Part shown: piece by piece, positions 17,801 to 57,000 of the stretch
Numbering within the stretch: the first letter of the stretch is position 1
How the letters are laid out: each line of letters opens with the position of its first letter
Assembly: GCA_034440615.1 (NCBI GenBank)
Contig: JAOTOM010005185.1
Location: forward strand, 1,490,001 to 1,554,000
DNA length: 64,000 nucleotides
Reading direction: 5' to 3'
From: Ashinkailepas kermadecensis
Taxonomy: Eukaryota > Arthropoda > Thecostraca > Neolepadidae
The notes under the pieces: model-generated
The model's input: the letters and a program-made list of their open reading frames with translations, nothing else
Told to the model about the DNA's origin: nothing
The model's database searches: none
Position numbers and translations under genes: made by a program

Positions 17801-20800
17801 GTATTTGTGGTAACTGACGGCAGATGACGTTGACTGACGGTATTGGTGGTAACTGACGGCAGCTAACGTTGACTGACGGTATTGGTGGTAACTGACGGCA
17901 GCTGACGTTGACTGACGGTATTGGTGGTAACTGACGGCAGCTGACGTTGACTGACGGTATTGGTGGTAACTGACGGCAGCTGACGTTGACTGACGGTATT
18001 GGTGGTAACTGACGGCAGCTGACGCTGACTGACGGTATTGGTGGTAACTGACGGCAAATGACGTTGACTGACGGTATTGGTGGTAACTGACGGCAGATGA
18101 CGTTGACTGACGGTATTGGTGGTAACTGACGGCAGCTGACGTTGACTGACGGTATTGGTGGTAACTGACGGCAGCTGACGTTGACTGACGGTATTGGTGG
18201 TAACTGACGGCAAATGACGTTGACTGACGGTATTGGTGGTAACTGACGGCAGATGACGTTGACTGACGGTATTGGTGGTAACTGACGGCAGATGACGTTG
18301 ACTGACGGTATTGGTGGTAACTGACGGCAGCTGACGTTGACTGACGGTATTGGTGGTAACTGACGGCAGATGACGCTGACTGACGCCAGTTGTGACGTCA
18401 GCTGTCCTGCAACAACTGTGGGCCAGTGATACATTTTTCGCGGAATAGGGTGTAATATGCCACTTACTGAACACTGAATCGACATCCTTTCCAAAGGAGT
18501 ATCGACATCGTGCTTCTTGGTGCGTGTTTGTGAAGTCGCCATGCCTCGTCTCCAACTGTATCCCGTTTACAAGTGTAATGCTTATGCTCACCATAATGGA
18601 TCCCGAATCGTGATAACGAACATCCCATAATGCATTTCCAGGTGAAAGGATTAGCTATGATGTGCTATGTTATACAATGCCAGTTTATTGCATAGTTGTT
18701 TTTATCGTTATCGTTGTTATCGGTATCCCCAACTTATATTCCTCTCAAAACACTCAAAACGAAAACGGTGACATGTTCGCAATTGTCTCAACACTGGGTT
18801 TTCAGAACTTCACTAAGTTTTACTAACATTATTTCCATGACGATTTCGACATCCTCCTGTACTCGTTTCAACAGCTCACACCTAACGAGAAGTCATTACA
18901 TGCACACTGGTGTGGGCCTGCTTGTGACGACGTCTGGCGGTCTGACTGTGACGGTGCACCGTGTTGTCCGGCAGAGCTGCAGCACCGCGCCCTGTCGGTG
19001 ATCGCCGACCGCGGCAGCGACACACTGGTGTGGGCACACTTGTGACGACGTCTGGCGGTCTGACTGTGACGGTGCACCGTGTTGTCCGGCAGAGCTGCAG
19101 CACCGCGCCCTGTCGGTGATCGCCGACCGCCGCAGGACACACTGGTGTGGACACACTTGTGACGACGTCTGGCGGTCTGACTGTGACGGTGCACCGTGTT
19201 GTCGGCGAGCTGCAGCACCGCGCCCTGTCCGTGATGCCGACCGCCGCGACACTGGTGTGGGTACACTTGTGACGACGTCTGGCGGTCTGACTGTGACGGT
19301 GCACCGTGTTGTCGGCGAGCTGCAGACCGCGCCTGTCGGTGATCGCCGACCGCCGCAGCGACACCCTGGTGTGGGCACGTGACGACGTCTGGCGGTTGAC
19401 TGTGACGGTGCACCGTGTGTCCGGCAGAGCTGCAGCACGCGCCTGTGTGATCGCCGACCGCGCAGGCACACTGGTGTGGGCACACTTGTGACGACGTCTG
19501 GCGGTCTGACTGTGACGGTGCACCGTGTTGTCCGGCAGAGCTGCAGCACCGCGCCCTGTCGGTGATCGCCGACCGCAGCAGCGACACACTGGAGCACTGT
19601 CAGCTGGTGCTGCTGCTGCTCAACAGGTTCCCGCACATGGTCAACGGCCACGGGGTCAGTACGGGCCGCGGTACGGTCACGGGGTCAGTACGGCCGTAGT
19701 ACGGTCACGGGGTCAGTACGGGCCGCGGTACGGTCACGGGGTCAGTACAGGCCGCGGTACGGTCACGGGGTCAGTACAGGCCGCGGTACGGTCACGGGGT
19801 CAGTACGGGCCGCAGTACGGTCACGGGGTCAGTACGGGCCGCAGCACGGTCACGGGGTCAGTACGGGCCGCAGCACGGTCACGGGGTCAGTATGGGCCGC
19901 AGTACGGTCACGGGGTCAGTACGGGCCACAGTACGGTCACGGGGTCAGTATGGGCCGTAGCACGGTCACGGGGTCAGTACAGGCCGCAGCACCGTCACGG
20001 GGTCAGTATGGGCCGCGGTACGGTCACAGGGTCAGTACGGACCGCAGTACGGTCATGGGGTCAGTACGGGCTGCAGCACGGCCACGGCGTCAGTATGGGC
20101 CGCGGTACGGTCACAGGGTCAGTACGGACCGCAGTACGGTCATGGGGTCAGTACGGGCTGCAGCACGGTCACGGCGTCAGTATGAGCCGCGGTACGGTCA
20201 TGGGGTCAGTATGGGCCGTAGAACGGTCACGGGACCAGTACGGGCTGCAGCACGGTCATGGGGTCAGCACGGGTCGCAGTACGGTGATGTGATCAGTACA
20301 AGCTGCAGCACGGATAGGGGGGCAGTGCCCAGTTGACGATCATGGCGGGAGCGTGGGTCTGCTGTCCCAGGGTCAGTGCTCTCCGAGCGATTACGAGGTC
20401 AGTGGTGGGTCAAATATCATATGTTGGGACATTAGTCACACATTCCATCTGAGTCCATTGTGTTAACGTCATGGTGCACCAGCTAGGTATGATATCAACA
20501 ATCAAGACTGCTCTACCCGACGCTGCATACGGCAAGGAGCTTCGAAACGAATATAGTAGATCATCAGGGACGAATAGATAACCTCTGGTCAGGTAATGTC
20601 GTACAGTGCATATGTTCACGCCCTTGGTGATAATATGAGTGATGCAACTGATAACCCAGTCCTTAGGGGCAGTTGGAGCTGTGCCTCCACTGACAACCTC
20701 CTGACCCCCCCCCCCAGACCAGGGTGGTGTACCCACATTGACTACCTCCTGACCCCCACAGACCAGTGTGATGTACCCACACTGACTACCTCCTGACCCC

Positions 20801-54000: not shown

Positions 54001-57000
54001 GCTGAGCGTCAGGCCGGTGTGTTCGGCGAACTCGGCGTGGTCCTGAGAGTGGATGTAGTCGAAAATACTGCTGCCGCACATCTCCACCTGCGGCGCAGGC
54101 AGCCCGTCAGCGGCTCGTCGGTTCCCGCCCAGAACAGACCAGCCCAGACCAGCCCAGACCAGCCCAGATCAGCCCAGACCAGCCCAGATCAGCCCAGACC
54201 AGATAGGCTCATCCCAGCCCAGACCAGAGCGAGGCAAGACCAGACCAGCGCAATGCCAGACCGGACCACCTCAGGGCACACCAGAACAGCACAAGGCGAG
54301 GCCACAGTGAGGAGGAATTCGACGCAGGAATTGCAACGAGTGAAGAGTGAATGGAAAAGAAATCTACCGCAGGTGAGCAGCGTTTGAGCATAGGAAGCGA
54401 ACAGTGGGTGATCGGCGATTGAGCAGGAAATGTACAGCTGATTGAGGGTGAGCAGTGTTTCAGCTGGAAGCATACGGCGAGCAAGTGAAAAGTTACTGCA
54501 TTTGCTACATCACCTAGCGTGTGGTGTAGCCACTGCTTCAATGCTTCAGTGGTCAATTCTTAGCTTGGTGCCATACTATTTTCGTGCTAACGTCGGTGTC
54601 GTGCTGTTGAAATGCTTAGCTTGGTGTCATACTATTTAGATGCTTAGCTTGGTGTCATACTATTCATATAAAACTATGCTGAAGATAAGTATTGAGTATA
54701 TAGTTTAGGTGTAAAGAGACGTAGAGGCAGTGTGAATTTTTTTCAATTACATTCTTGCTATGTACAATTACTTGTCAGTCGCGTTGATAGGGTGGTGTTA
54801 GGTGTGTAGGCTAATACTAAAGGAGTGGGAAATCGACGGTATTGTCCAGCTTTCGGTGGGAAAGAAGAAAATTCGCCTCATAGATAACGGAGTATTGCCC
54901 CACATGCCCCTTCCCGTAACTGCGCTGTAGCTTCCTGCTAATATTGATGCACATCTTTCACTAGCATTACTGAAACGTAATTGAATATTAGCGCAACCAA
55001 AGTGTTTTATTAATGTTATCGAAAAGTGATTTAACATATCGATATGTACGCATGAAATACCAGTTGTATTTTTATCACATCAATCGCTGTATCCCAATCA
55101 AGGGCGTATAAATATATCCAATGCTTAATGGAATATTATTAAAGGAATTTTCCATGGAAAGTCATGCTTAATAAACACTGTAGTGATGAAGTGGATCAGG
55201 AGGATGAACACAAGACAATACAATAACCAATTTGATATACTAGTGGTGGCTTTGCGCTATAATTTCCACGTTGATATTAACGATTTAAACCTGGATCGAA
55301 TCTTCAACACCAGGACGAAATACTTCTGAAATTTAGCGTAATATTGTACTCGACTTATTTTCCTTGCCAGGAATGCATGGCCTGTGATGTGACTAGTAGA
55401 CTGTGGAATGGCTTCAAGGCGCTGCTATTACCGGTCAGCAGCCATGGACCGGCTCCAAAGCCTGTGGCCTGATCAGTAGGCTATAGACGGTCTCGAGGGC
55501 CTATGCTATGGTCAGTAGGCCATATATCGGCTCCAAGGCCCACGCTATGGTCAGTAGGCCATGGATCGGCTCCAAGGCCTACGCTATGGTCAGTAGGCCA
55601 TAGATCGGCTCCAAGGTCTGTGATCTGATCAGTTGACCACGGACCGGCTCCAAGGCGCTGCCATCACCGGCCAGCAGCCATCACCTATTATTATCACCGA
55701 TGCGAATTTACCGATATTAGAGGCGAGAGCAGAACCGGTTTTCCGCGGCGTTTGTCGGCCACAGCCGCCCGCCGCGAGCGGCGCCACACGTCAGTGGATG
55801 TTGGCGGGTAAACTGTCAATTTGGCGGGTGAATTAGCCGACCGGTCAAGCGCGCTTTTTAGCGGCGGCGTTCGGTAATGGAGGCCGATGAAATACTCCCT
55901 GATAGACAGGTCATAGCGAGGCTTGAACGTGAGTTATGGTGATTGAAAACTGGACGCGTGTGATGGAAAGTCGTTGAGCACGGTAGACGAGCAACGGCGT
56001 TGTTGGATTGCCGTGGAAGCACGCCCTTTACCTCGAATCTATGCTGATGTCGCATCATGGCTGTGAGCCATCGACAATCCTATGGTTGTTCGGTGCCAAG
56101 CTTAAGTAATCTCAGTTTACGTAGAATATCGATAACCCAAATGCACCCAGCAACATAGTAGATAATCGTATTACTCCGCTACACACACACAGATTGTCCG
56201 AGATTAATGAGCCAGCACCGACACGGCAGGGTTGAAGCCATGCAATGTAGACGTGCAAGTTGGCATATCATTTAGGTGTTCCATTAAGGCATATCCATTA
56301 AGGTGTTCACTGGTCAGGTCAATGCCACCCTTTGTTGGTTTGGAGGGCGTCTATGTCCTTGAAAAACAGCTTTTTGTCGCCATTGGATTGGGTCGATAGG
56401 ACCATTTCCTGTTTCTGGACAGCAGCGAAATCCGCTGAAAAGACATTATGGTGTTCCTACAATTACCGATACATAAATAGAACATAAATAGAACGTAGCA
56501 ACAATAAGCTAGTGTCGTGCAGCTGCAACCCATCGCATATTGGGTATGCACAACCAGTGGGATGACATCAACATCTAGGTAGCAGTGCATCATGCATTAT
56601 GGCATTGCCGTACCGTATTTATGCTCGCGCGAAGTACGACAATACCACCAGCAATTACAATAATGTTTTATGAGCATACCTAGCTTAAAATGTCCACTCT
56701 AATGTTGGAGCAGTGATGTCACTCTTTTAAACGAATAGTAAGAGAAGCATGGGAAGTTGGATAACACATGGCAGTCACCGCAGCAACATGGCAGTCGCCG
56801 CAGCAACATGGCAGTCGCCGCAGCCAGTCCGCCCCCGCCCAAGCGTCCACTCACCTGTGACAGCCCTAGGTAAATGGACACTGTTTCTGATATGTACAAA
56901 AATCTTCCGTCTGTGGCGAGGGTAAAGGTGAACCCGTCCAGGGACTGAAACACACGGACACGCCGCGTCAGCTGCCGAGCACACCGAGCAGCCGTCACCA

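What the first reader, a model, noticed from the sequence alone, without database searches (positions are those of the whole stretch)
18905..54087. Splice-junction-seeded minisatellites in two unrelated neighbouring genes
In INTS10 (+) and the bHLH-PAS gene (-), about nine tandem arrays have a repeat unit that spans a true exon/intron boundary: exon 4 acceptor (118 bp) and donor (29 bp), exon 5 acceptor (46), exon 9 donor (31), exon 11 acceptor (62), exon 12 acceptor (51), exon 13 donor (68, two copies), and trh donors at 53,934 (72) and 45,130 (30). The real junction is always the copy at the exon edge and each array has its own sequence and period. Chance placement of minisatellites would rarely include the junction so often. 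Inference: a local process (for example R-loops or nicks at splice sites, or slippage seeded by short repeats) nucleates amplification at exon edges. It would create many decoy splice sites that the cell must ignore.
Basis: partly seen in the sequence, partly recalled or inferred. Interest (0 to 1): 0.92.

Follow-up and report, generated by a model that had tools for sequence, protein, structure and literature searches.

The report
Splice-junction minisatellites in a barnacle
In a barnacle genome, some tandem DNA repeats carry many copies of a gene's splice site next to the real one; they likely arise by ordinary duplication in GC-rich DNA around exons and would persist because splicing is predicted to use the copy touching the exon, a pattern already described in lancelets.

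Summary
In detail: all nine arrays exist and cross the splice junction, with the working junction at the exon edge. The window is barnacle DNA. The kind is known: lancelet "mirages".

In the window 9 of 30 arrays cross a junction, 2.0-2.1 expected from random unit placement in collapsed introns (p=5.5e-5), but the window was picked by eye. In 13 other genes (129 introns, 87 arrays) 11 cross, 5.9-7.5 expected (p=0.03-0.12); without PRPF8 (6 of 13) 5 of 74, 4.7-5.9 expected. So mirages recur in other genes, but general junction seeding is not supported. The excess is broader: 23 further arrays lie within 60 bp of an exon without crossing, 10.7-12.9 expected. Arrays are GC-rich. None lies wholly inside an exon, roughly 24 expected. 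A consensus donor word is within the range of control words in tandem triples genome-wide.

Best reading: ordinary minisatellite birth in GC-rich exon-flanking DNA, filtered by selection and hidden by exon-proximal splice choice (inferred; splicing untested). The excess in PRPF8 and INTS10 is unexplained.

The parts
18903..19592 (+). 110-118 bp x 6 array crossing the INTS10 exon 4 acceptor (exon starts 19539)
   Evidence: TRF; exon; junction copies
19644..20313 (+). 29 bp x 23 array crossing the INTS10 exon 4 donor (exon ends 19654)
   Evidence: 20 of 22 junction-like copies keep GT
20709..20814 (+). 44 bp x 2.4 array crossing the INTS10 exon 5 acceptor (exon starts 20806)
24242..24928 (+). 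31 bp x 22 array crossing the INTS10 exon 9 donor (exon ends 24269)
   Evidence: 21 of 21 junction-like copies keep GT
25958..26290 (+). 68/123 bp degenerate array crossing the INTS10 exon 11 acceptor (exon starts 26254)
27525..29859 (+). 51 bp x 46 array crossing the INTS10 exon 12 acceptor (exon starts 29828)
   Evidence: 45 of 45 junction-like copies keep AG
30642..30784 (+). 68 bp x 2.1 duplication crossing the INTS10 exon 13 donor (exon ends 30661)
   Evidence: the single junction-like copy has lost the GT
35767..35986 (+). 73 bp x 3 array starting 6 bp after INTS10 exon 14 (ends 35760); possible decayed junction array
   Evidence: exon similarity rank p=0.05
53329..53950 (-). 72 bp array (core 53644-53950) crossing a donor of the bHLH-PAS gene (exon ends 53934, donor GTATGT)
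44620..45133 (-). 30 bp x 17 array crossing a donor of the bHLH-PAS gene by about 4 bp (exon ends 45130, donor GTCAGT)
   Evidence: exon-similarity test not passed
14768..37073 (+). INTS10, 15 coding exons (first one partial)
   Evidence: spliced alignment to P0002 (691 aa) and P0001
41167..60322 (-). NPAS1/NPAS3/trachealess-like bHLH-PAS gene; PAS exons mapped, last exon 41167-42045 taken from an open frame
   Evidence: spliced alignment to human NPAS3 typed from recall, open frame; two exon ends set by eye

Best explanation
These are minisatellites in a barnacle genome whose repeat unit includes a splice junction ("mirages"); they likely begin as ordinary tandem duplications in GC-rich DNA around exons, and are likely kept because splicing is predicted to use the copy that touches the exon. 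Step 1 (shown in the genes sampled): arrays are common in introns, are GC-rich, and cross or lie within 60 bp of an exon edge 1.7-2 times as often as random placement predicts. Step 2 (shown in the exons kept for analysis): none of the arrays lies wholly inside a coding exon, though roughly 24 would be expected at the intron rate; exon sequence is amplified only in units that straddle a junction. Step 3 (inferred): duplications inside exons are removed by selection because they alter the protein, while a junction-straddling duplication is harmless if pairing of splice sites across the exon selects the exon-proximal copy; the other copies become intron. Step 4 (inferred): the intronic copies then expand and homogenise as ordinary minisatellites, while the exon-edge copy stays fixed by its coding role. 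The junction is thus where exon-derived duplications survive, and is not in general their cause.
For: All nine arrays confirmed. Eleven further crossing arrays in 6 of 13 other genes: PRPF8 (6), myosin V, myosin VII, myosin ID, a myosin heavy chain, CCT2; the PRPF8 39-bp acceptor case is weak (5 bp into the exon; best match 25 of 40) and the myosin VII copies have lost the AG. Outside PRPF8 the crossing rate equals random placement (5 of 74; 4.7-5.9 expected). Near-but-not-crossing arrays are in excess (23 of 87; 10.7-12.9 expected; p=0.0002-0.002) and are mostly not decayed mirages (4 of 32 within 80 bp share exon sequence), so the favoured zone is wider than the junction. Arrays have mean GC 0.547 (other genes) and 0.586 (window) against 0.485-0.487 for control placements; adjusted odds ratio for crossing or lying within 60 bp is 2.15 (1.29-3.68) and for crossing alone 1.59 (0.70-3.05) in the other genes. 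0 arrays wholly in exons against 4.3 + 19.7 expected. Crossing units are divisible by 3 in 6 of 19 cases, as chance predicts, so read-through of copies is not maintained. Tandem triples per single word genome-wide: donor CAGGTRAGT 1139/16553 (6.9%); its reverse 455/11068 (4.1%); scramble ATGACRGTG 2078/23291 (8.9%); its reverse 2628/19365 (13.6%).
Against: PRPF8 (6 of 13; p=0.0004-0.001) and the window (9 of 30) both show a crossing excess that this reading does not explain; GC adjustment in the window leaves an odds ratio of 3.16 (0.97-7.57). Five presumably widely expressed genes together give 7 of 23 crossing, 1.7-2.2 expected (p=0.0008-0.002), against 4 of 64 in eight myosin genes. Against its own reverse the donor word is in excess in tandem triples (1139 to 455). 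Which copy is spliced was not measured. The near-exon excess is not fully explained by GC and could reflect loss or dilution of older DNA in mid-intron. The expected count of exon-only arrays is rough, since an array must also fit in the exon.
Confidence: 0.62

Rival explanations
1. Splice junctions seed the arrays: a process linked to transcription or splicing (for example R-loops or nicks at exon edges in germline-active genes) starts the tandem duplication there.
For: Window 9 of 30 crossing, 2.0-2.1 expected; PRPF8 6 of 13, 1.2-1.7 expected; five presumably widely expressed genes 7 of 23 against eight myosin genes 4 of 64. Among arrays crossing or within 60 bp, 7 of 12 against 4 of 22 cross (Fisher p=0.026, post hoc).
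Against: No excess in the eight myosin genes, and none in the other genes once PRPF8 is left out. CLTC has 1 array, which abuts a junction without sharing exon sequence, and CCT1 has none. Donor words in tandem triples lie within the range of control words. No expression data were available here.
Confidence: 0.2
2. Survivorship of old DNA: introns grew by insertions into their middles, so arrays born in short ancestral introns now lie next to exons.
For: The excess near exons is broader than the junction and weaker when only collapsed introns up to 600 bp are used (10 of 22 within 20 bp, 6.6 expected, p=0.079, ten genes then held).
Against: The excess is still present in collapsed introns up to 1000 bp (17 of 44; 9.8 expected; p=0.007). 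It does not explain PRPF8 or INTS10.
Confidence: 0.12
3. The copies are functional alternative splice sites that give isoforms.
For: Window copies keep GT/AG in 112 of 125 cases and 88 score at least as high as the real site. In human IFI6 repeat units are used as donors (PMC4526556, passage).
Against: 13 of 19 crossing unit lengths are not multiples of 3, so use of most copies would shift the frame of conserved proteins. Conservation of sites is expected from array homogenisation alone.
Confidence: 0.04
4. Assembly artefact.
For: Tandem arrays are hard to assemble; no reads were available here.
Against: Each array has its own period and sequence, copies differ from one another (TRF match 77-97% for the nine arrays), and the pattern recurs on 7 contigs including the window's. 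For lancelet PGBD5 re-sequencing argued against assembly error (PMC3902484, passage).
Confidence: 0.02

Closest known systems
Mirages of lancelets (Adh3, globins BflGb6 and BflGb9, troponin C, PGBD5; PMC3087553 and PMC3902484, passages)
   Same: Minisatellite-like repeats spanning exon-intron boundaries at donors and acceptors, own unit per site (10-160 bp), many copies keep AG/GT, genuine junction at the exon edge.
   Different: Here in an arthropod, in 8 of 15 genes examined (two of them chosen for it), with up to 46 copies; splicing, length polymorphism and somatic instability not tested.
Human IFI6 (6-16) minisatellite (Turri 1995, cited in PMC4526556; the original paper was not read)
   Same: Minisatellite at an exon edge that supplies repeated splice donors.
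   Different: In IFI6 further copies are used as donors; no such evidence here.
Internal tandem repeats at exon-intron boundaries of human segmental-duplication genes (PMC2812944, passages)
   Same: Minisatellites (about 30-bp units) located at exon-intron boundaries.
   Different: There they change splicing and half lie in coding exons; here no array lies wholly in the exons examined.

Membership tests
mirage (lancelet exon-intron boundary minisatellite) | Tandem repeat unit spans an exon-intron boundary | tested here: met
   9 arrays in the window, 11 in 13 other genes; the 30-bp array at 45130 only by about 4 bp
mirage (lancelet exon-intron boundary minisatellite) | Both donors and acceptors affected | tested here: met
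   window 5 donors and 4 acceptors; others 6 and 5
mirage (lancelet exon-intron boundary minisatellite) | Many but not all copies keep AG/GT | tested here: met
   112 of 125 junction-like copies in the window
mirage (lancelet exon-intron boundary minisatellite) | Regular splicing is not disturbed | not testable with these tools
   no transcripts held for this genome
mirage (lancelet exon-intron boundary minisatellite) | Length polymorphism and somatic instability | not testable with these tools
   one assembly, no reads
IFI6-type minisatellite with used alternative donors | Array copies serve as splice donors in mRNA | not testable with these tools
   no transcripts; unit lengths argue against it

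The most novel reading that the evidence does not exclude
In a subset of constitutively active genes (PRPF8 and INTS10 here), transcription or splicing seeds tandem duplications at splice junctions, giving about five times the chance rate of junction-crossing minisatellites, while tissue-specific genes show only the chance rate: exon edges would be germline mutation hotspots that track expression.
Probability: 0.18. Interest if true: 0.82.

Novelty: new member of a known kind. Interest (0 to 1): 0.5.

Why it matters
Repeats of this kind are described in lancelets and in some human genes. Eight searches of an open-licence PubMed Central library (listings, with passages of six papers) showed me no arthropod case; most subscription papers are not in it. 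In this barnacle they occur in 8 of 15 genes examined, among them conserved housekeeping genes (INTS10, PRPF8, CCT2), and many copies score as well as the real splice sites. That makes a natural assay of how the spliceosome chooses among tens of near-identical sites, a likely source of gene-annotation errors, and a possible raw material for new introns (a model put forward for lancelet globins).

Tried and rejected
Rejected: the simple coverage null (arrays fill much of the INTS10 introns), because an array crosses a junction only if its unit did; units were therefore placed at random in introns collapsed to one unit per array. Rejected: that near-exon arrays are mostly decayed mirages (4 of 32 within 80 bp share exon sequence). 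Rejected: frame maintenance (6 of 19 units divisible by 3; the 30-bp array was not in that list). Limits: 129 of 160 aligned introns were kept in the 13 other genes (filters: exon identity at least 0.45, at least 8 residues, contiguous protein match, splice score); the fetched contig C2743 (20 kb) was not used for want of a template; C3897 holds 4500 N. The 13 genes are a convenience sample, 8 of them myosins aligned partly with human templates. "Widely expressed" is general knowledge, not measured. The GC adjustment predates the CCT genes and the 1-bp correction of two bHLH-PAS exon ends; searches counted 8 crossing arrays in the window for that reason, one search counts 9. The bHLH-PAS gene may lack an exon between 54 and 48.5 kb; the aligner first placed the exon 3 end at 53904 with a spurious mini-exon, and I set it at 53934 by eye. 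The donor word fits only 1 of 143 real donors, triple matches count places, not arrays, single words include copies inside arrays, and only one scramble was tried. A PDB sequence search gave no significant hit. Papers listed but not relevant on a passage search: Daphnia tandem repeats (PMC3152781, no mention of splice) and earthworm metallothionein genes (PMC12783039, minisatellites in an intron, no junction repeats in the passages).
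Full report
What was checked. INTS10 was identified by protein search: Pollicipes pollicipes (P0001) and Amphibalanus amphitrite (P0002) INTS10 are the best of 6 hits. Identity in aligned residues is 82.4% to P0001 and 70.8% to P0002, so the organism is taken to be a barnacle other than those two; the species was not identified. 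The genome holds 907.66 Mb in 4689 contigs.

Junction copies. Windows of 12+12 bp centred on each INTS10 junction recur within 3 kb at exon 4 acceptor (3 places), exon 4 donor (19), exon 5 acceptor (1), exon 9 donor (19), exon 12 acceptor (38) and exon 13 donor (1); exon 11 acceptor is degenerate (best 20 of 24) and no other junction passes. The two bHLH-PAS donors repeat with 72 and 30 bp. That gene was aligned to human NPAS3 typed from recall; "trachealess-like" rests on that and on general knowledge. In the two genes 112 of 125 junction-like copies keep GT or AG and 88 score at least as high as the real site by a generic weight matrix recalled from memory. The exon edge shares sequence with the unit in 18 of 18 arrays then counted as crossing, but not in the 30-bp array at 45130, which reaches about 4 bp into the exon.

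Chance. An array crosses a junction only if its unit does, so the null places each unit at random in introns collapsed to one unit per array. INTS10: 7 of 18, 1.44 expected. Window: 9 of 30, 1.96-2.12 expected, p=5.5e-5; 7 more lie within 60 bp without crossing, 3.1-3.4 expected.

Other genes. Myosin exons were located with Pfam PF00063, PRPF8 and clathrin heavy chain with human proteins typed from recall, chaperonin genes with PF00118. Stretches were fetched and aligned. Crossing arrays: myosin V donor (39 bp x 27), myosin VII acceptor (73 x 3), myosin ID acceptor (70 x 5), a myosin heavy chain acceptor (95 x 2.7), six in PRPF8 (one of them weak), one at a CCT2 donor. Totals for 13 genes: 129 introns, 87 arrays, 11 crossing; expected 7.5 (same intron, p=0.12) or 5.9 (any intron of the gene, p=0.03). 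Leaving PRPF8 out: 5 of 74, expected 5.85 or 4.70. Near without crossing: 23, expected 12.9 or 10.7 (p=0.002, 0.0002). Myosins: 4 of 64 crossing (4.2-5.3 expected), 18 near (7.7-9.2). Presumably widely expressed genes (PRPF8, CLTC, CCT1, CCT2, CCT4): 7 of 23 crossing (1.7-2.2), 5 near (3.1-3.7). All. CLTC has one array, starting at the first intron base; CCT1 has none.

Why near exons. Intron GC (arrays included) falls from 0.59-0.62 within 20 bp of exons to 0.44-0.51 beyond 250 bp in myosins, PRPF8 and the window, and from 0.50 to 0.44 in CLTC. Arrays are GC-rich. A logistic comparison with random placements gives, for the ten other genes then held, odds ratios adjusted for GC of 1.59 (0.70-3.05) for crossing and 2.15 (1.29-3.68) for crossing or lying within 60 bp; for the window 3.16 (0.97-7.57) and 2.93 (0.93-6.77). 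GC therefore explains part of the pattern. No array lies wholly in the 32.8 kb of exon examined (roughly 24 expected at the intron rate), which fits removal by selection.

Whole-genome word test. CAGGTRAGT occurs 16553 times and in 1139 tandem triples with 15-45 bp gaps; the reversed word 11068 and 455; the scramble ATGACRGTG 23291 and 2078; its reverse 19365 and 2628. The donor exceeds its own reverse but lies within the range of the three controls. By eye, the first 100 listed places fall in about 19 arrays for both the donor and the scramble (lists capped at 100).

Comparison with the literature. "Mirages" in lancelet globin, Adh3, troponin C and PGBD5 genes match in form; the authors report normal splicing and length instability (PMC3087553, abstract and passages; PMC3902484, one passage). 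Human parallels: IFI6 (PMC4526556, two passages) and tandem repeats at exon-intron boundaries in segmental duplications (PMC2812944, passages). The paper searches listed no arthropod case, within an open-licence library.

Mechanism. Shown in the genes sampled: junction-containing units, exon-edge genuine copy, excess near exons, GC preference, none inside exons, no frame rule. Inferred: birth by ordinary duplication, choice of the exon-proximal site by exon definition (general knowledge of splicing), later neutral expansion. Untested: splicing, polymorphism, expression link. The excess in PRPF8 and INTS10 is the part that would reward a full annotation.

Noticed in passing
1146-5243: Reverse-transcriptase-like open frames on both strands, two similar non-LTR-like copies facing each other; named by eye from the translation.
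   Followed up: no
8913-10904 (-): 663-aa open frame resembling a hAT-type transposase by eye.
   Followed up: no
57424-59201: 35 bp x 51 array in the first mapped intron of the bHLH-PAS gene, not touching a junction.
   Followed up: partly
P0001 (Pollicipes pollicipes INTS10, 537 aa): The database protein lacks the residues of exon 9 and parts of exons 8 and 11, next to places where this genome has arrays at the exon 9 donor and exon 11 acceptor; perhaps an annotation error caused by similar arrays.
   Followed up: no
G000:C4393 and C4673: Muscle myosin genes with several copies of the exon encoding motor positions 377-436, probably mutually exclusive exons.
   Followed up: no
G000:C2400:63712-65589: Myosin motor match of positions 3-646 in one open frame of 669 codons, without introns, unlike the other myosin genes.
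   Followed up: no
G000:C4646:270607-274117 and C3901:301-7001: Chaperonin matches of very similar score and extent on two contigs, perhaps two haplotypes of one gene; not compared.
   Followed up: no
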